A stretch of DNA of 54,126 bases, from assembly GCA_018266795.1 (NCBI GenBank), contig JAFDZV010000011.1, positions 1 to 54,126 on the forward strand. Reading direction: 5' to 3'. The notes beneath the pieces were generated by a model. It did not search any database. It was not told the DNA's origin and saw only the letters and a list, made by a program, of their open reading frames with translations. Positions within the stretch are counted from its first letter, which is position 1, and each line of letters opens with the position of its first letter. Shown here piece by piece: positions 1-11,687 of the stretch. Source of the DNA: Bacteroidota bacterium. Lineage in GTDB: Bacteria > Bacteroidota > Ignavibacteria > OLB7. Position numbers and translations under genes: made by a program.

Positions 1-1544
1 CACCATAACAGGGCAAGATCAGTCCCTTCCTCCACCATCGGATCGGGCATGGCCTCGCCCGCCTCCCCATCGGCTCCGGCCGGTTTCACGATCGCTCCGT
101 GGCGCATCAGCAGCTCCCAGTCCGCGGGAAGCAGGTCCGCCGGTTCCAACGGGTTGCGCGCGGGATTCACACCCGGCTCGCACGCGTCCGGACACTCCGC
201 CATCGCCTCCGTATCCGCCTGATTCCCCACCCACTGGGGTTCCAATGCCCATTGGTGCCAGGTAACGGCGGGGTAGTTCCGCGGCAGCACCGCCGAGCGA
301 CACTCCGCCAGAGCCTTGCCGGCAATGCCATCGGCCGGCAGAACAGCCTGCGCTCCATCCACGCCCTCAGCCTGCGGTTCATCCGCATTCGATCCACCCA
401 GGCCAGGGGCCGCATCCAGCCTTGCCAGCATCATCCCGAGCGCAAAGGGACCATCGGTCCGCTCCGTCACGCCGCCGTTGTTGAAGAGGAGCGTGGCGGC
501 ATCGTAGATGCCGTACGCCGCCCCAACCTCCGCGGAGCGTTCCATATCCACGGCAACCACCAGCAGGCTGCCGTTGTAATTCGCGGCGATATCCTCCAGC
601 AGCGCGGACCGCTGTTCCGGGGTGCCGCCACGCAGATCCAGCGGCGAGGAGAAATCGGCAAGCACCGGCACGCCGGAGCGCGCAAGCACCCGCTGCAGCC
701 AGATGAAGGACCGCACCGGCAGCACGCCCGATGGCGTCCCCTTCACATCGGCGAACGGGACGTTCCCTTCGCGTCCCGGAAGCCGGGGCCGGTTCATCCG
801 CGACCTCTCTCCGTAGGCACGGCCTGGAGACGCAGGCGTCTGCTCCGGGCGGCCGGCAGCATCAGCCACCGGCACGTCGCGTTGCGACATCTCATCCGCC
901 CGGGCAGACATCGCAGGCAACCCGGAACCAAAGCCGGGACTGAAGGAGTAGGCCGCAACCGGCGCACCGGCACTCCGGCGAATCGAATCCACGGCGGCCT
1001 TAACCGAAGGAAGCTCCAGCCACGCACCGAGATCCGGCTGCGCCACAAGGCTCTTGACGCTGACCAGCCCGCGGGGATCGGCAGGGCGCGTGGTAGTGGA
1101 GGCATCCAGGCCGAGCGGCCATGTGATCACCTCGTGCACAACGGTTCCTTCATCCAGGCGGATCGCCTTGCGCTCCACCAGATGCCCGGCCGTACCGGAA
1201 CTCCAGTTCAGCTTGTTGGTTGCGGCAAGGTGATAGAGCGCGGCCTCGTACTCGTCACGAAGAGCAAGCTGTGCCTCGATCCAGATACCGATATCGTCAA
1301 CACGGAGTGCACCGATGGCCAGGCGCCGCCCCTTGAGCACCGGGTCCAGCCCGTGATCGTGCAGCGTACGGCTCTTGAAGCCGCAGGCGTCCAATTCGAA
1401 CGCGGTGCGCGGGGTGAAGAAATCGCGATGGCGTGTCAGGTCGTACGCGCCCGGCGAGCCGAACACCACCAGATGCCCGGCGATGGCACCCTGCCTCGAT
1501 GCCTTGCACGCGCCGCCACAGGCGGCAATCTCCATTGCATCCAT
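1..1544 (-). CDS. HK97-type prohead protease fused to a thioredoxin-like domain (partial)
   Basis: The minus-strand frame is open from ATG at 1544 to the left edge (514 codons, no stop), with an in-frame TGA three codons before the ATG. Residues about 20-165 match the phage prohead (capsid maturation) protease fold: GHLVVFG strand, LHDHGLDP with His64, DDIGIWIEAQL, RDEYE, then WSSGTAGHL with Ser115/116 and a closing TTRPADPRG segment. His and Ser fall where HK97 gp4 has its catalytic pair. Residues about 281-370 look like a thioredoxin fold (VPVLADFSSP, then AAYGIYDAATLLFNNGG), but the CxxC pair is missing. The linker and tail are acidic and low in complexity. Known: this protease trims the capsid scaffold. 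Inferred: prophage remnant, gene transfer agent or domesticated capsid gene. No portal or terminase gene is visible upstream. No clear ribosome site; ATG 1535 is an alternative start. Confidence 0.8.
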   Translation of the reverse strand, partial: MDAMEIAACGGACKASRQGAIAGHLVVFGSPGAYDLTRHRDFFTPRTAFELDACGFKSRTLHDHGLDPVLKGRRLAIGALRVDDIGIWIEAQLALRDEYEAALYHLAATNKLNWSSGTAGHLVERKAIRLDEGTVVHEVITWPLGLDASTTTRPADPRGLVSVKSLVAQPDLGAWLELPSVKAAVDSIRRSAGAPVAAYSFSPGFGSGLPAMSARADEMSQRDVPVADAAGRPEQTPASPGRAYGERSRMNRPRLPGREGNVPFADVKGTPSGVLPVRSFIWLQRVLARSGVPVLADFSSPLDLRGGTPEQRSALLEDIAANYNGSLLVVAVDMERSAEVGAAYGIYDAATLLFNNGGVTERTDGPFALGMMLARLDAAPGLGGSNADEPQAEGVDGAQAVLPADGIAGKALAECRSAVLPRNYPAVTWHQWALEPQWVGNQADTEAMAECPDACEPGVNPARNPLEPADLLPADWELLMRHGAIVKPAGADGEAGEAMPDPMVEEGTDLALLW

Positions 1545-2081: not shown

Positions 2082-2867
2082 TTATCGTGCGTGCCGTCGC
2101 AGCAACCCACGCGCAAATTTCTCAAAATCCATCTTTGCAATTCTCATGCAACCATCCTCCTGAAGCGCCAGTTCAGATAGATGTTGCGGAGGCCTATGGC
2201 TCCCAACAAAGTAATACCACCCGAAGCTTGCAATCATGAATCGGTAGAACCGGAACCCCATATATTTGCCTGTCCCAGGAAAGGCGATCAACCCAAGAGG
2301 GCGCTTGCCATCGAGGGCATCAACCAGAATGGTCGTAATGCAGGGGTATTGCTCACAGCTACCCGGATCACTGGAAAGCAGCATGCACCGCAATCGTTCC
2401 TCATGCCGTGCTCCCAATTGCACCGATGCGCATTCCTTCAGCGTGGATATGCCGGCACGCCACAGGATCGAAAGCTGAAGCAGCTTGTATTGCCGATAGT
2501 CGACCCCCTGTACTATAAAGCCCTCCGCATCGTTCCGAGTACGAATGCTGGCGGGATCATGGAGGTTACCATTGAACAGTCGTGCACCATAGTCCTCGAT
2601 TCGCGCAAAACGTCCTTCACACTCGCGGCAAAGCAGTCGGTCTGTGTATCCCTTCTGCACAATCTTTGGAGTTGCGAGCCAGTTGCAGGGATTTATTTGT
2701 GGTTTGTCGAACACAAGCATCCGGTGTTTGTCATCATATGTTTCGCGGTAGAAGAACTCCGGAATGATGTGCGAGCGACACAATGGACGATCTTTCCGGC
2801 ACAACTGACAGATGGACCGAGAAATAGGGAGTGCGATAGTTGACATTGGCGTTGCTTGAAAAGGCAT
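2082..2867 (-). CDS. HNH-like zinc-binding protein
   Basis: This 261-residue protein has a CQLC knuckle at residues 20-23, the motif SHIIPEFFYR at 32-41, and a second LLCREC knuckle at 79-83. C-x2-C, S-H-I-I-P and C-x2-C in this order is the signature of a widespread HNH-related zinc-ribbon family often annotated as HNH endonuclease or hypothetical. The C-terminal 150 residues have no recognised domain but carry aromatic-rich strands. Base composition is clearly lower in GC than the flanking barrel and TonB genes, as in the divergent neighbour at 3205, which suggests transfer of both. Met8 (ATG at 2846) is an alternative start; neither start has a good ribosome site. Nuclease activity is an inference from the fold signature. 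Confidence 0.7.
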   Translation of the reverse strand: MPFQATPMSTIALPISRSICQLCRKDRPLCRSHIIPEFFYRETYDDKHRMLVFDKPQINPCNWLATPKIVQKGYTDRLLCRECEGRFARIEDYGARLFNGNLHDPASIRTRNDAEGFIVQGVDYRQYKLLQLSILWRAGISTLKECASVQLGARHEERLRCMLLSSDPGSCEQYPCITTILVDALDGKRPLGLIAFPGTGKYMGFRFYRFMIASFGWYYFVGSHRPPQHLSELALQEDGCMRIAKMDFEKFARGLLRRHAR

Positions 2868-3204
2868 GGCAACACTGACTGTGAATCGGGAAACTACGGC
2901 GTCGCGCTGTCCCCTTCAAAATAACGGGTCACATCACACCAGGAGATCGGCCCAATTCTACAGCTGGGCCTTCTTTCATCTGGAGAACTGTTTGCCAGCT
3001 ACGCCCAAACGCTGCGCACTGATAGAAATCATAAAGCCAACAAAAGCTTGGATGCTTCGTCGCCATGCGATACATTCGGATCATCGTAGTCGCGAACATA
3101 GGCAGGTACATTGTGTGGGAGATGCCGCGCATATTATTAATAGGATAGAGATCGCACGTATTGCGCCGTACTGACATAAAAATGCAAGCTTGATTGATAG
3201 CCAT
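2868..3204. other. Divergent intergenic region of the low-GC island
   Basis: It separates the divergent genes at 2867 (-) and 3205 (+) and presumably holds both promoters; none could be assigned firmly. A hairpin at 2949-2970 is followed by TTCTTTC on the plus strand. Confidence 0.4.
2949..2977 (+). terminator. Possible orphan terminator hairpin
   Basis: GGCCCA / TGGGCC with a ten-base loop, followed by TTCTTTC. No plus-strand gene is recognised just upstream, so it may be a relic or chance. Confidence 0.25.
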
Positions 3205-4062
3205 ATGCCTAATCCTCCAAACTTTCGTTTCTCGATCGACCTCGATACTTCCAAGAGTGTCGCTAAACAATCCGAGGCCGACCTTGTACAATTCCTGTGC
3301 AAGGAGGGTGACGTCTTTAAGGGTTTTGCTCGAGACTACCTCGGCCTTGATGAAAGAACGTACCTTCTTGCTACCAACGTTGTTCAGCCATTGCGTGACG
3401 GCCGGCGGCAAAAACCGGGCGATATCGATGTGCTGTTTGTCCCTGGCGCTGCTGCAGAGCAGGCTATTGCGATCGAATGCAAGGTAGTGCCGATCGTTGC
3501 CGCCGACTACGTTCGCGCTCCAGGCAATGGTGGTACGAAGGTGCCGGCCGGAGAGTTTACAGGCGAGGAGGGAGAGTATGTCTTGAGCAGCGCGAAGGCG
3601 CGCAATAGATTTCAGGCGCTACGGCGTAGCATTGAACAGGTAACGGCACTGTGCGAGCTTGGATTTCACCAGACCTATCTCTGTGTAATCGTGGCGGCGG
3701 ACATGCAGGCGCGTCAGGGATACAATTGGTTCTATCGAGTGCCCTCGGATCAGGAACATCGTGAAATCATAGATCAGTGTGTGGGTCTCGGGCTGCCGGA
3801 AGAGTGCGGCATTGTGTTCGTGCAGATCACGCAACCCTCGGAAATGTCTGTGTTATACTCAGGTGGGTTGATGTTGCGGCTCTATCGTGCCGCAACATCG
3901 CTGCGGCAGACCGCCCAGATCACTTCACGCGTTGAGCAGTTGGTAGCGGCGCCGTCCGAGTACCTTGAAAACGAGCGGATTGTGGATTCATACACAGCTC
4001 CACATTGTACCCCCACACTTCACTGTGTTCCCGGCAGGCGGCAACTTCGGTGGGATGATTGA
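3205..4062 (+). CDS. PD-(D/E)XK-like putative nuclease
   Basis: This 285-residue protein has no firm family match by eye. Residues about 73-95 read GDIDVLFVPG, a short gap, then AIAIECKVV. This is the layout of a PD-(D/E)XK nuclease core, with Asp75 and the Glu91-x-Lys93 pair on adjacent strands. A helix with E and Q residues (SEADLVQFLCKEGDVFK) precedes it, as in many such folds. Base composition is lower in GC than in the surrounding genes, like the divergent HNH-like gene. The frame is open back to a TTG at 3190, but ATG 3205 is the first ordinary start. The last 30 residues are Cys- and Arg-rich and may be loosely constrained. Together with its neighbour it could be a small defence or mobile module; that is an inference. 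Confidence 0.6.
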   Translation: MPNPPNFRFSIDLDTSKSVAKQSEADLVQFLCKEGDVFKGFARDYLGLDERTYLLATNVVQPLRDGRRQKPGDIDVLFVPGAAAEQAIAIECKVVPIVAADYVRAPGNGGTKVPAGEFTGEEGEYVLSSAKARNRFQALRRSIEQVTALCELGFHQTYLCVIVAADMQARQGYNWFYRVPSDQEHREIIDQCVGLGLPEECGIVFVQITQPSEMSVLYSGGLMLRLYRAATSLRQTAQITSRVEQLVAAPSEYLENERIVDSYTAPHCTPTLHCVPGRRQLRWDD

Positions 4063-4086: not shown

Positions 4087-5610
4087 CTACAACCGGAAGT
4101 GCGTCCCCAGCGTGAAGGCACCGTCAACGCGGCGGCGGTCCGCGAAGAAGAGGCTGGTTACCTCGGAGGTGGCGACGTCCAGGGAAAGCCAGCTGAACGG
4201 CCGCAGCCCAACTCCCAGCGCCATCGCCGCGCCAAGGCGGCCGCCAAGCTGCATCCCGCTCCGGAGCACGAAGAAGCTGGTGGGTCGCCATTCCGCCCCC
4301 AGCGAACAGCGCGTTGCGCGCTCGCCGCCAATCTGATGGTTCATGTCGAACGCCGTCTCGAAGCTTGCAATCAGGTCACCGGGGATTCCCGGAACGAAGG
4401 CGGTCACGTCCGCTCCCAGGCCAACGCGAAGCGTCATCGGGAGCACCGTGGTGAAGGCGCCGATGGTATCCAGCTTCGCCGTGTAGCGGTAGATCACGTC
4501 GTTGGAGATGCCGCCGTTCTGGTCCGTGAGGGTGTCGCGGATGTCCGGGTAGGAGCGGAGCCGGTTGGCGCCGTTCCAGTTGATGGTCCCCACGCCATCC
4601 AGCGCCACCCCGAACACCAGGGCGTCGCGCTTGCTTCTATCCTCGTGCGATATCTGCTGCGGGTTCAGCGGATCGCCGGTGATGGAGACGGTGGCCGCGG
4701 ACATCTTGCGCAGGATCACGATGGACATCCCCAGCCCCCCCTCCCATCCGATCGATGTCACCGTCTTGGAGCCGAAGAGCCCGGAGTTGAGGATCGCGTC
4801 GGAGGCCTTGAATTGCGAGTCCGCCGGCGTGGAGGAGCGGAACGTATACGCGCCGCGCACTTCGATGCTCCGGTAGGTTTCCCCCAGCGGCGACTGAATC
4901 ACGTGGGCGGAGGCCCAGCTGGACTGGTCCACGTCGAAGTGCACGATCCCCTCCAGGTAGGAGAGGCTGTAGCCCACGCCGAAGGCGGGGAACCAGGCGG
5001 AGGTTTCCTCCGGGTCGACCGGCCGCTCCCAGGCACTCGCCATGGTCACGGTAAGGTTGCGGGTCCAGTCGCCGCCGATCTCCGGGCTGTCGAACCGCTG
5101 GTCCTTGGCGAACACATCGCCGCTGCCAAGCACGCCGGTCCGGAAGTTCTCCGGGAAGTTCATCTGCGCGCGCACGCGGTGGCCGTAGCGGATGCCGATG
5201 GCGCCGATTCCCGGCGCCCGCAGGCGGAGTGCGAAGGCGTCCACCTCCGCATCGGCGGAAAGCCGCCCCTCCTCGATCAGCGAGGCGAGCCGAAGGCGGT
5301 CATCATCGGTGAAGATGCCGCGATCCTTCTTGTCGAAGACGAAGTTGAGCGATGATGGGTCCAGATACGTGGAACCGGCCACCGCCCCCATCGGTAGGAG
5401 CGCCAGATCAACCTCCACCTGCTGCACGCTGTCATACAGCCCCATATGTTCAAGCCCCAGCGCTCCGGGATTGGCGTAGAGCGCGGAGAGCCCGCGCGCG
5501 GTTGCCACGGAGGCCTTCCCCATGCCGATCGATTCCGCGTCGCCGCGCTGCTGCGCGCGCACCGCGGGGCAGAACGCGGGGAGCAGCAACGCCGCGAGAA
5601 GCAGCGCCAT
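4087..5610 (-). CDS. Outer-membrane barrel protein, DUF5723-like (paralogue of 23476-24915)
   Basis: The start at 5610 is chosen because GGGAGG lies about seven bases upstream and the protein then opens with a good signal peptide (MALLLAALLLPAF to VRAQQ). The frame is open further upstream, to 6186, but that extension is low-complexity. The mature 507-residue protein begins with the pattern IGMGKASVATARG, then ALYANPGALGLEH, then AGSTYLDPSSLNF. The same order (MGKARASVASVRG, NPGALDL, GSTYLSSSDF) occurs in the protein at 23476-24915, so the two are paralogues. Alternating hydrophobic strands and a C-terminal phenylalanine-leucine region fit an outer-membrane beta barrel of the FadL/DUF5723 type; substrate unknown. 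It is convergent with the nuclease-like gene at 3205-4062 and divergent from the TonB receptor. Confidence 0.75.
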   Translation of the reverse strand: MALLLAALLLPAFCPAVRAQQRGDAESIGMGKASVATARGLSALYANPGALGLEHMGLYDSVQQVEVDLALLPMGAVAGSTYLDPSSLNFVFDKKDRGIFTDDDRLRLASLIEEGRLSADAEVDAFALRLRAPGIGAIGIRYGHRVRAQMNFPENFRTGVLGSGDVFAKDQRFDSPEIGGDWTRNLTVTMASAWERPVDPEETSAWFPAFGVGYSLSYLEGIVHFDVDQSSWASAHVIQSPLGETYRSIEVRGAYTFRSSTPADSQFKASDAILNSGLFGSKTVTSIGWEGGLGMSIVILRKMSAATVSITGDPLNPQQISHEDRSKRDALVFGVALDGVGTINWNGANRLRSYPDIRDTLTDQNGGISNDVIYRYTAKLDTIGAFTTVLPMTLRVGLGADVTAFVPGIPGDLIASFETAFDMNHQIGGERATRCSLGAEWRPTSFFVLRSGMQLGGRLGAAMALGVGLRPFSWLSLDVATSEVTSLFFADRRRVDGAFTLGTHFRL

Positions 5611-6091
5611 CCATGGCCTCCCGCTTCGGCATGCGGCGCCCCGTTGCGCGAACGCTCGCGTCACGACGCCGTGAAGCATGCTGCCGCTGCACACGGCGCT
5701 TCTTGTTGCCGGGTTCGCCCACCCACGGCTGCGAAACGTAGTCGCACGATGCGGCCGGGACGGTACCTGCGGATTGGTATGGCATGCAGCGGGAAATGGG
5801 AATAGATTGGCCGGATTGTGCGCGTGCCGGTCCCGCAGGCGCCGGCCTGCAGCGGCCCGGTTTGCCGCGGACCGGTTTGCCGCGGACCGGTTTGCCGTTG
5901 GGTGCGCCGCGCGGGAAGGCAGTGTGGCTGCGGGGACGTTCATGGTTGTATACTCCGTTTCGTGGACTCGATACGGATTCCCGTACGGCCGATACAACAG
6001 GGGGCGGCGGTTGTCATCGGTATCGAAGCGGCTGCGCGCACCGGCACGCGGCACATCATCTTCATGAACGCCCATAAGCGGAGATAACGGG
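5611..6091. other. Divergent intergenic region with a triplicated 15-mer
   Basis: It lies between the barrel gene (start 5610, minus) and the TonB receptor (start 6092, plus). It holds the tandem repeat at 5857-5901. No promoter could be assigned with confidence. Confidence 0.45.
5857..5901. repeat. Three tandem 15-base repeats
   Basis: Two identical copies of CCGGTTTGCCGCGGA (5857-5871, 5872-5886) and a third diverged at its end (5887-5901). Each unit has palindromic parts (CCGG, CCGCGG). Confidence 0.9.
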
Positions 6092-8557
6092 TTGGAACCT
6101 CGAGGCGCATCGCACTGGACACGACAAGTTAGGAAATCTGCTCTGCTTCTTTTCATCATGATCCTTCTCGGGGGGCGTTCGGTCACGCGCGCCCAGGATG
6201 GCGCTGCACAATCGCTCTCCGGTATTATCTATGAAAAAGTCTCGGGGGAATACGTCACAGGGGCAACCGTAATCCTCCGTACGGACAGCGTCCAGGCCAA
6301 CGGTGCGGGGACCGGAAGCGGGGCAGGAAGCGAGACGGGAAGCGGCACCGGCAGCGGCGCGGCCGGCAGCGGAGTTCGCGGGGCGGTCAGCAATCGATAC
6401 GGGTTCTTCTCCATTGCCAACGTCCCCCCCGGCAGCTACCACCTGATGGTGCGAACGGTGGGCTTCGCCGTCTACAACCAGCCGCTCGTGATCGCCCCCG
6501 GCGAACGGGCGCCGCAGTTGAAGATCGAGCTGGAGGAGAAGCACGTGAGCGGCGACTCCGTTGTGGTAACGGCGGATCGCGATCCGGCGCCAACCGCCTC
6601 GCTCAGCCGCGTGGACCTGCGTCCGGAGATGATGCAGAAGCTTCCGGCACTGGGCGGGGAGACCGATATCTTCCGCGTGCTGCAGCTTCTTCCGGGGGTG
6701 AAGGCCGCAAGCGAGATCTCCAGCGGCCTCTACGTTCGCGGCGGTTCGCCCGATCAGAACCTGACCCTTCTGGACGGCGTGATCGTCTACAACCCCTCCC
6801 ATCTGGGCGGATTCCTGAGCACGTTCAACTCCGATGCCATCCGCGATATCCGGCTGATCAAGGGAGCCTTCCCCGCCGAGTACGGAGGCCGTCTCTCCAG
6901 CGTGCTGGACCTCACGATGCGCGAGGGAACCAAGGAGAAGATCACCGGCACCGGCGGCATCAGCCTGATCAATTCGCGCCTCACCATCCAGGGGCCCATC
7001 GCCGAAGGCTCCACCTTCATGCTCTCCGGCCGCCGGATGTATCTGGACCTCCTGTTGCTGGCGCTGAACGCCACCGACCGCGACCAGACCCCGCAGTACT
7101 ACTTCTACGATCTGAACGGCAAGGTGAACTACAAGATATCGGACAGGGATCATCTCTTCCTGAGCGGCTACTTCGGGCGCGACGTGCTGAACAGTCCGCC
7201 GGCCACCGATCTGGACTTCGGCATCAACTGGGGGAACTCTACCGCCAACCTCCGCTGGGCGCACGTGGTCTCCCCGCAGCTCTTCACCAACTTCTCCGCG
7301 GTCTACTCGGACTACGGCTTCTCCACGCTCCTCGTGGACAGGCAGAACATGCAGGACCGTACCTCCAACTTCAAATCGGTCTCAGGCATTCGCGACTACA
7401 TGCTCCGCGGCGAGGCGCAGTACTATCCGGATGACGATCACGTGGTGAAGGCCGGCATCGAGGCAACGGAGCATCGGTTCCGCGCGGATGCGAGCGTGGA
7501 GGTGAACGATTTCGGCCGTATCGATCAGCAGCCAACCATCCTCACCTCGCTGGATGCATCGGTCTACGCCCAGGACGAGTGGCAGATCACGCCGCGGCTC
7601 TCCAGCAACATCGGCGCGCGGCTCTACTACTTCCAGAGCGGGAACTATCTCCGGTTCGAGCCGCGGATATCGCTGGCATATGCGCTCGCCGAGGATCTGA
7701 TGCTGAAGGGATCGTTCGCGGTGGACAACCAGTTCCTGCACCTGATCACGCGCAACGATATCACGCTTCCAACGGACGTCTGGTTCCCCTCCACCGCAAC
7801 CGTGAAGCCATCGGAGGCATGGCAGGCCGTGATGGGAGTGGAGACGCATCTGTTCAATCACGAATACCTGCTCACGGTGGAGGGGTATTACAAGAAGATG
7901 AGCAACCTCCTGGAGTACAAGGACACGGCACAGCTTTCCATTCTGGTGCCGCTGGAAAACTCCTTCACCTCCGGCAGCGGCGATGCGTACGGCGTGGAGG
8001 TGTTCCTGAACAAGCAGGTGGGCTCCTTCACCGGATGGATCGGCTACACGCTTGCCTGGACCAGCCGCACGTTCGGGGAGTTGAACAGGGGGATGCCCTT
8101 CCCGCCCCGCTACGATCGCCGCCACGATATCTCCGTTGTGCTCACCTATCGCCTGGGGGAATCGTGGGAGCTGGGCGCAACCTGGGTGTACGGTACCGGG
8201 CAGGCCTACACCATGCCCAGCGGGCGCTATAGCGTCTCCACCGCGGCAAACGACATCCCGGTACCGGGTATCGACGACACGCAGGAGTACTACGGGCGTA
8301 ATGACTACACGGACCGCAACGGCTATCGCATCCCCGCCTTCCACAAGCTGGATCTGAACTTCACCCATTCGTTCTCGTGGTTCTCGTTGCCGTGGCAGCT
8401 TTCCCTCGATGTTTACAACGCCTACAATCACAAGAACGTCTTCGCACAGTTCGTGGAGAACCGGTACGATCCGGCCACCGGTTCCTATGGCCCGAAGCTT
8501 GTCCGGATCACGCTCTTCCCCATCATCCCGACACTCGGTATCAACTTCAAGTTCTGA
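6092..8557 (+). CDS. TonB-dependent receptor with carboxypeptidase-regulatory N-domain
   Basis: This 821-residue outer-membrane transporter starts at TTG 6092, with GGAG eight bases upstream; residues 17-35 form a signal peptide ending VTRAQ. Residues about 40-145 are a carboxypeptidase-regulatory-like domain (SGEYVTGATV, then VSNRYGFFSIANVPPGSYHL). A Gly/Ser-rich insertion of about 24 residues (71-94) interrupts it. The plug follows at about 155-270 (LLPGVKAASEISSGLYVRGG, TLLDGVIVYNPSHLGG, IKGAFPAEYGGRLSSVLDL), then a beta barrel ending in LGINFKF with the expected terminal Phe. Known: such receptors import substrates across the outer membrane using TonB energy, often with a surface lipoprotein. 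The lipoprotein gene that follows, possibly overlapping by TGATG, supports co-translation. The substrate cannot be told from sequence. Confidence 0.93.
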   Translation: MEPRGASHWTRQVRKSALLLFIMILLGGRSVTRAQDGAAQSLSGIIYEKVSGEYVTGATVILRTDSVQANGAGTGSGAGSETGSGTGSGAAGSGVRGAVSNRYGFFSIANVPPGSYHLMVRTVGFAVYNQPLVIAPGERAPQLKIELEEKHVSGDSVVVTADRDPAPTASLSRVDLRPEMMQKLPALGGETDIFRVLQLLPGVKAASEISSGLYVRGGSPDQNLTLLDGVIVYNPSHLGGFLSTFNSDAIRDIRLIKGAFPAEYGGRLSSVLDLTMREGTKEKITGTGGISLINSRLTIQGPIAEGSTFMLSGRRMYLDLLLLALNATDRDQTPQYYFYDLNGKVNYKISDRDHLFLSGYFGRDVLNSPPATDLDFGINWGNSTANLRWAHVVSPQLFTNFSAVYSDYGFSTLLVDRQNMQDRTSNFKSVSGIRDYMLRGEAQYYPDDDHVVKAGIEATEHRFRADASVEVNDFGRIDQQPTILTSLDASVYAQDEWQITPRLSSNIGARLYYFQSGNYLRFEPRISLAYALAEDLMLKGSFAVDNQFLHLITRNDITLPTDVWFPSTATVKPSEAWQAVMGVETHLFNHEYLLTVEGYYKKMSNLLEYKDTAQLSILVPLENSFTSGSGDAYGVEVFLNKQVGSFTGWIGYTLAWTSRTFGELNRGMPFPPRYDRRHDISVVLTYRLGESWELGATWVYGTGQAYTMPSGRYSVSTAANDIPVPGIDDTQEYYGRNDYTDRNGYRIPAFHKLDLNFTHSFSWFSLPWQLSLDVYNAYNHKNVFAQFVENRYDPATGSYGPKLVRITLFPIIPTLGINFKF

Positions 8558-10739: not shown

Positions 10740-11687
10740 TTGCCTTGCACGGGTTCAGGAACCTTCAGCACTACGAACGTGAGAACACCGGCCCCCGCTC
10801 CAACCCGGCTTATCGTAGCATCGACGATTACGGCGTCTCTGCCCACTCCACCGGAACAGCATCCTCCACGTGCCCCGCGGCGTTCTGCAAAGACACGCAC
10901 GTCAACGAAGGCGAGGGCCGTGACCCCCTCACCTCCGAAGTGGAGCGCCGAAGAAGATGCCGTCCTCCGGAAATACTATCCCGGCGAGGGAGCACAGTAT
11001 TGCGCCACGAAGCTTGGGCGTCCGAAGAGCGGCGTCAACGCGCGGGCCGAGAAGCTTGGCATTCGCAGCCTGGACACGAGGCCATGGACGAACAAGGAAG
11101 ATGCTCTTCTGCGGTTGCGCTACGGTAAGCTGACCGCTCCGCGTCTGGCGGCGATGCTGAGGCGTTCGGAGATGGGTGTACGCCATCGGATACGCAAGCT
11201 CGGACTGAACGGAACAGGGTCTGCACCCTGGACTTCCGATGACTGCGCGTTTCTGTGTGCTCACTATGACACGATGACGAAGGCGGAGATTGCATCGGAG
11301 CTTGGGCGGACCGTGGATGCAGTGGAGTTGAAAGCTGCCCGTATGGGGCTCTCACAGCGTCTCGTGCGCCTGACACCGGAGCAGGAACGGTATGTTGCCG
11401 AACACATGGAGATGCGGACCTGCACGGACATTGCGAGAGACCTGGGTATAGGAGTGAACACGGTCATCCGTGCAGTTCGGAAGAACGGCTATCGTGCGCG
11501 CCCGACGTCGCGCGCGTGGACTGCGGATGAAGATGAACGGCTTCGCGAACTGTTTCCGGTGATGCGGAACCGTGAGATCGCCGAACAGCTGGAGCGAACG
11601 GAACTTGCTGTGAAGCTGCGCTGCAGGTCGCTTGGTTTGTTCAGGAAGTTGAAGCGACGCAGCGCTGAAGCCTCCGGCGGCGAATGA
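10740..11687 (+). CDS. Protein with five Myb/SANT-like helix-turn-helix repeats
   Basis: From about nucleotide 10940 the protein has five tandem units of about 45 residues. Each opens with a W or equivalent plus acidic residues (KWSAEEDAVL; PWTNKEDALL; PWTSDDCAFL; RLTPEQERYV; AWTADEDERL). Each then has an I/L-A-x-x-L-x-R segment and closes with a recognition-helix-like pattern ending in LGI, LGLN, MGLS, NGYR or SLGL. This is the layout of Myb/SANT-like or GcrA-like DNA-binding repeats; the fourth lacks the tryptophan. Known: single or double copies occur in bacterial and phage DNA-binding proteins. The listed start, TTG 10740, gives a Pro/Ala/Thr/Arg-rich N-tail and is the longest option. GTG 10920, preceded by GAAGGCGAGG, is equally possible and would start just before the first repeat. 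Target DNA unknown; the XRE gene and operator lie upstream. Confidence 0.7.
   Translation: MPCTGSGTFSTTNVRTPAPAPTRLIVASTITASLPTPPEQHPPRAPRRSAKTRTSTKARAVTPSPPKWSAEEDAVLRKYYPGEGAQYCATKLGRPKSGVNARAEKLGIRSLDTRPWTNKEDALLRLRYGKLTAPRLAAMLRRSEMGVRHRIRKLGLNGTGSAPWTSDDCAFLCAHYDTMTKAEIASELGRTVDAVELKAARMGLSQRLVRLTPEQERYVAEHMEMRTCTDIARDLGIGVNTVIRAVRKNGYRARPTSRAWTADEDERLRELFPVMRNREIAEQLERTELAVKLRCRSLGLFRKLKRRSAEASGGE

What the first reader, a model, noticed from the sequence alone, without database searches (positions are those of the whole stretch)
1..1544. Prohead protease fused to a thioredoxin-like domain, outside a visible prophage
The N-terminal half has the prohead protease pattern with His64 and Ser115/116, followed by a thioredoxin-like fold without CxxC. 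I know of no such fusion. The gene has no portal or terminase next to it inside the window. It may mature an encapsulin- or gene-transfer-agent-like shell, or be a prophage remnant.
Basis: partly seen in the sequence, partly recalled or inferred. Interest (0 to 1): 0.75.

Follow-up and report, generated by a model that had tools for sequence, protein, structure and literature searches.

The report
Phage head protease carrying dead thioredoxin
A bacterial chromosome carries a broken viral remnant whose head-building protease is joined to a thioredoxin-shaped module that lacks the residues needed for redox chemistry, a combination absent from 80 related viral sequences checked here.

Summary
ORF 3-1544 (-) has a prohead protease domain (aa ~6-165) with an intact triad: His64 and Ser115 in 55 of 55 aligned sequences, Asp/Glu147 in all. 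Its model best matches T4 gp21 and herpesvirus proteases. After a linker comes a thioredoxin fold (aa ~275-379) without CxxC or the cis-proline, then an acidic tail.

'Outside a prophage' is only half right. The window starts at a contig edge. In a same-genus genome the neighbours DUF5723 and the ClpB C-terminal half lie side by side; here they lie on two contigs (C2, C67), separated by phage genes: the protease on C2; small terminase, large terminase and portal on C67. So this is one end of one inserted, incompletely assembled phage island. The gene runs into a 21-23 bp sequence shared by three contig ends, probably a mobile-element terminus, which truncates it near aa 506. No HK97-type capsid gene was found, so the element is probably defective.

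The protease belongs to a common phage family: of 80 IMG/VR relatives, 44 have the capsid in the same ORF and most others directly downstream. None carries thioredoxin. The fusion is real but, so far, a single case; the thioredoxin fold's role is inferred.

The parts
3..1544 (-). Whole open frame, 514 aa, truncated at the contig edge
   Evidence: high GC at third codon positions throughout
1050..1529 (-). Prohead protease domain (S78-like), aa 6-165; triad His64 (1353-1355), Ser115 (1200-1202), Asp147 (1104-1106)
   Evidence: (pLDDT above 90 for residues 21-150)
735..974 (-). Ala/Gly/Pro/Ser-rich linker, aa 191-270, low-confidence (probably disordered) in the model
795..797 (-). In-frame ATG (Met250) with GGAGAG upstream, a possible internal start for a separate thioredoxin-like product
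   Evidence: sequence inspection only
408..722 (-). Thioredoxin-fold domain, aa ~275-379, without CxxC and without cis-Pro
27..389 (-). Acidic C-terminal tail, aa 386-506 (net charge -16), no relatives found
1..21 (-). TGATCTTGCCCTGTTATGGTG, shared with the ends of contigs C29 and C34; probable terminus of a multicopy mobile element that interrupts the gene
2082..2867 (-). Island gene at the left border, PHROG 19960-like (unknown function), HNH-like Cys/His pattern by eye
   Evidence: E 1.6e-27
3190..4062 (+). Island gene of unknown function at the left border
   Evidence: no family match
4087..6186 (-). Host gene (DUF5723) that flanks the insertion; its homologue in same-genus G001 is next to the ClpB C-half

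Best explanation
The gene is the head-maturation (prohead) serine protease of a tailed phage. It lies at one end of a phage-derived island inserted between the host genes DUF5723 and the ClpB C-terminal half; TerS, TerL and portal form the other end on contig C67. Shown: the domain, its triad, the shared insertion site, and a shared contig-end sequence that truncates the gene. Inferred: the protease entered the prohead and cleaved capsid and scaffold; the linker, thioredoxin fold and acidic tail occupy the place taken in relatives by a scaffold-like segment or the fused capsid, and act as a non-redox structural or targeting module, probably derived from a cellular thioredoxin and removed by self-cleavage or made separately from an internal start. 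The element is probably defective now, because no capsid gene is found in the assembly and the protease gene is interrupted.
For: Homology and triad, fold. The window side (to 4130) and the C67 side (from 6266) align to G001 sequence only ~115 bp apart. C67 carries TerS, TerL and portal ending just before ClpB-C. C67 TerL and portal match those upstream of the same protease type in viral contigs. GC is similar (0.669 protease, 0.657-0.663 C67 phage genes). Capsid is in the same ORF in 44 of 80 viral relatives and next to it in most others. No PF05065 in the genome at E<=1. Shared 21-23 bp at three contig ends. Thioredoxin fold without CxxC or cis-Pro.
Against: The sequence between C2:1 and C67:1 is not known, so a capsid gene could lie in unassembled DNA, and the mobile element itself was not identified. 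No flanking direct repeat of 11 bp or more was found at the island borders. Protease at one end and portal at the other means the head operon is split at the insertion borders, an order not explained. The scaffold/targeting role has no direct evidence. The thioredoxin model was built with viral thioredoxin rows, so its fold match is not fully independent of the sequence match.
Confidence: 0.75

Rival explanations
1. The fusion is a by-product of decay or of a chance in-frame capture: the protease is a remnant and the thioredoxin part is non-functional cargo.
For: One case only; none of 80 viral relatives has it. The capsid is missing and the gene is interrupted. Some otherwise conserved protease positions are changed (N113 where 52 of 55 have G, T152 where 49 of 55 have P, H62 where 49 of 55 have Y).
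Against: The frame is open over the whole length with a steady third-position GC, and the triad and thioredoxin core are kept, while the redox positions are lost.
Confidence: 0.35
2. One gene, two products: an in-frame internal start (Met250) makes a free thioredoxin-like scaffold, in the manner of the lambda C/Nu3 nested genes (from general knowledge).
For: In-frame ATG with GGAGAG upstream at 795-797; a low-confidence, probably disordered linker precedes it.
Against: A single motif match; no homologue to test conservation of the start.
Confidence: 0.2
3. The gene matures an encapsulin-like or gene-transfer-agent-like shell that the host has domesticated.
For: Protease, TerS, TerL and portal frames are all open.
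Against: No HK97-type capsid in the genome; the portal has no relative in the same-genus genome G001 and only 4 of 294 class genomes, this one included, have one; the insertion is absent at the same site in G001.
Confidence: 0.05

Closest known systems
HK97-type prohead protease (Peptidase_S78, PF04586; TIGR01543)
   Same: Domain size, His-Ser-Asp/Glu triad, position next to or fused to PF05065 capsid in relatives
   Different: Window sequence is below Pfam's cut-off and carries a thioredoxin-fold extension not seen in 80 relatives
Protease-capsid single-ORF fusions of related phages (e.g. L036, L041, L048)
   Same: About half-identical protease domain (49-50% for these three)
   Different: They continue into the capsid protein; the window gene continues into a thioredoxin fold and is then truncated
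T4 gp21 and herpesvirus assemblin proteases
   Same: Fold (Z 9.7 for gp21, about 5-7.4 for herpesvirus proteases)
   Different: Sequence identity 6-19%; no thioredoxin domain known to me in either
Thioredoxin (PF00085, TrxA)
   Same: 26-37% identity and fold over ~100 aa
   Different: No CxxC and no cis-proline, so no thioredoxin redox chemistry is expected; embedded in a phage protein

Membership tests
S78 prohead protease | His-Ser-Asp/Glu catalytic triad | tested here: met
   H64 55/55, S115 55/55, position 147 D 33 / E 22
S78 prohead protease | Herpesvirus-assemblin-like / T4 gp21-like fold | tested here: met
   T4 gp21 Z 9.7, 129 residues, 3.1 A
S78 prohead protease | Score above the Pfam gathering cut-off | tested here: not met
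   12 bits against 21; relatives in the same alignment reach E 5e-9. This is a model threshold, not a biological feature; the profile and triad evidence places the domain in the family
S78 prohead protease | Gene between portal and major capsid | tested here: inconclusive
   True for relatives; here portal is at the other end of the island and capsid is not found
S78 prohead protease | Proteolytic activity on capsid or scaffold | not testable with these tools
   needs expression
Thioredoxin | Thioredoxin fold | tested here: met
   Foldseek E 3e-8, TM to target 0.75-0.8; sequence E 1.7e-6
Thioredoxin | CxxC active site and cis-Pro | tested here: not met
   alignment A3
Complete prophage | Capsid, tail and integration genes present with head genes | tested here: inconclusive
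   TerS, TerL, portal and protease present; no PF05065 capsid in the assembly; tail and integrase genes not searched; the middle of the island is not assembled
Encapsulin / gene-transfer agent | HK97-fold shell protein in the genome | tested here: inconclusive
   PF05065 absent; PF04454 not searched

The most novel reading that the evidence does not exclude
A phage captured a cellular thioredoxin, stripped it of redox chemistry and used it as the scaffold or cargo-recruiting module of its head protease, a new kind of prohead scaffold.
Probability: 0.15. Interest if true: 0.6.

Novelty: new variant of a known kind. Interest (0 to 1): 0.38.

Why it matters
Thioredoxin is known as a phage helper in DNA replication (T7 polymerase processivity, general knowledge) but I found no report in the searched library of one built into a head-maturation protease. 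If the domain works in head assembly it would show how a scaffold can be recruited from a cellular fold. The case also shows how a contig break and a multicopy element can make a prophage gene look orphaned: comparison with a same-genus genome joined the two halves.

Tried and rejected
Close relatives of the whole protein: none in genome contigs or viral contigs by single-sequence query, none in plasmids. A second thioredoxin-fused protease: none in 80 viral relatives; the class-level relative in G022 is a 386 aa protein whose only significant match to the window is the protease domain. Viral thioredoxins found with the domain profile: 7 loci; all those aligned over the active site are ordinary CxxC type. 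Rearrangement as the reason for a portal next to half of ClpB: rejected, because the C-half stands alone in same-family genomes too. Identification of the repeat at the contig end: its 22-mer gives no hit in genome contigs, and no other copy at a contig end was found with up to 3 mismatches. Attachment-site repeat: none of 11 bp or more. Foldseek on the whole model was too weak and was followed by the VIA-align comparison. My first thioredoxin profile contained wrongly oriented sequences and was redone.

Full report
What is there. The window begins at the first base of contig C2 of its genome. The frame 3-1544 (-) codes for 514 aa and is open at the contig edge. Pfam gives two weak hits, Peptidase_S78 at aa 19-116 and thioredoxin at aa 314-366; PHROGs gives none.

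Protease domain. A prophage protein in a same-class genome (G022) shares 44% identity over 160 aa. It lies directly after a portal gene and directly before an HK97-type capsid gene. About 30% identity links the domain to Salinibacter phage proteins encoded just before a capsid-like gene (the capsid-like reading of that gene is mine). An alignment of three found 186 viral contigs with relatives, 80 of them kept. In 55 aligned sequences His64 and Ser115 never vary and position 147 is always Asp or Glu, as in the His-Ser-Asp/Glu triad known for this class. AlphaFold2 gives pLDDT above 90 for residues 21-150 and the model matches T4 gp21 (Z 9.7) and then herpesvirus proteases, the relation reported for prohead proteases (PMC5694885).

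Thioredoxin domain. Residues ~284-372 match thioredoxins by sequence (E 1.7e-6 in PDB sequences; 37 bits with a profile of thioredoxins from the genome's relatives). The domain folds as a thioredoxin when modelled with viral thioredoxins (pTM 0.73; Foldseek E 3e-8; the alignment itself favours this outcome). WCGPC is replaced by LDLRGGTPEQ and the cis-proline motif IPT by AAT, so redox activity is not expected. A linker rich in Ala, Gly, Pro and Ser precedes it and an acidic tail follows. GC is high at third codon positions throughout (0.70-0.84), so the frame looks coding to the end.

How unusual. Of the 80 viral relatives, 44 have protease and capsid in one ORF and 22 have the capsid in the next frame by a local profile; six more were shown by Pfam. 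No thioredoxin was found in any ORF of these loci. I found no report of such a fusion in the held literature.

Where it lies. The genome has one portal, on contig C67, with TerS and TerL before it. The portal is followed by the C-terminal half of ClpB. In the same-genus genome G001 the homologue of the window's DUF5723 gene lies next to that ClpB half: window sequence aligns up to 4130 and C67 from 6266, to positions only ~115 bp apart in G001. So C2:1-~4100 and C67:1-~6250 are the two ends of one insertion. C67 TerL and portal resemble those upstream of the same protease type in viral contigs. The window's contig ends in TGATCTTGCCCTGTTATGGTG, also found at the ends of contigs C29 and C34 in the same direction; with up to 3 mismatches only one further, internal match turned up. 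I read this as the terminus of a multicopy mobile element inside the protease gene. No PF05065 capsid is found in the genome, though all nine downstream genes tested in viral relatives, and the one in G022, carry it.

Interpretation. This is the protease end of a probably defective phage island. What the thioredoxin fold does is not known. By position it replaces the scaffold-like segment or capsid that follows the protease in relatives, so a structural or targeting role is the best guess. Chance capture during decay is the main rival, because only one case is known. Domestication as a GTA or encapsulin system is unlikely.

Limits.

Noticed in passing
G000 C67:6254-7591 (-) (L021) and G000 C10 (+) (L149 4645-5961): ClpB is split into two unlinked genes at model position 428 of 853 (N-half 438 aa, C-half 445 aa). 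The C-half stands alone in same-genus G001 and in G003 and G004; in G003 and G004 the N-half frame is also only 499-503 aa and on another contig. A naturally split disaggregase would be worth its own study.
   Followed up: partly
window 10740-11687 (+): A 315 aa protein with several helix-turn-helix-like stretches that matches a phage 'D5-like' regulator family (E 1e-42), next to ordinary host genes.
   Followed up: no
contig ends C2:1-21, C29:271612-271634, C34:39418-39441: Three contigs end in the same 21-23 bp sequence in the same direction; the open frames entering it all read ...DLALLW. Probably a collapsed multicopy element; not found in genome contigs.
   Followed up: partly
viral loci L031-L110: Protease and major capsid protein are one ORF in 44 of 80 relatives.
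   Followed up: yes
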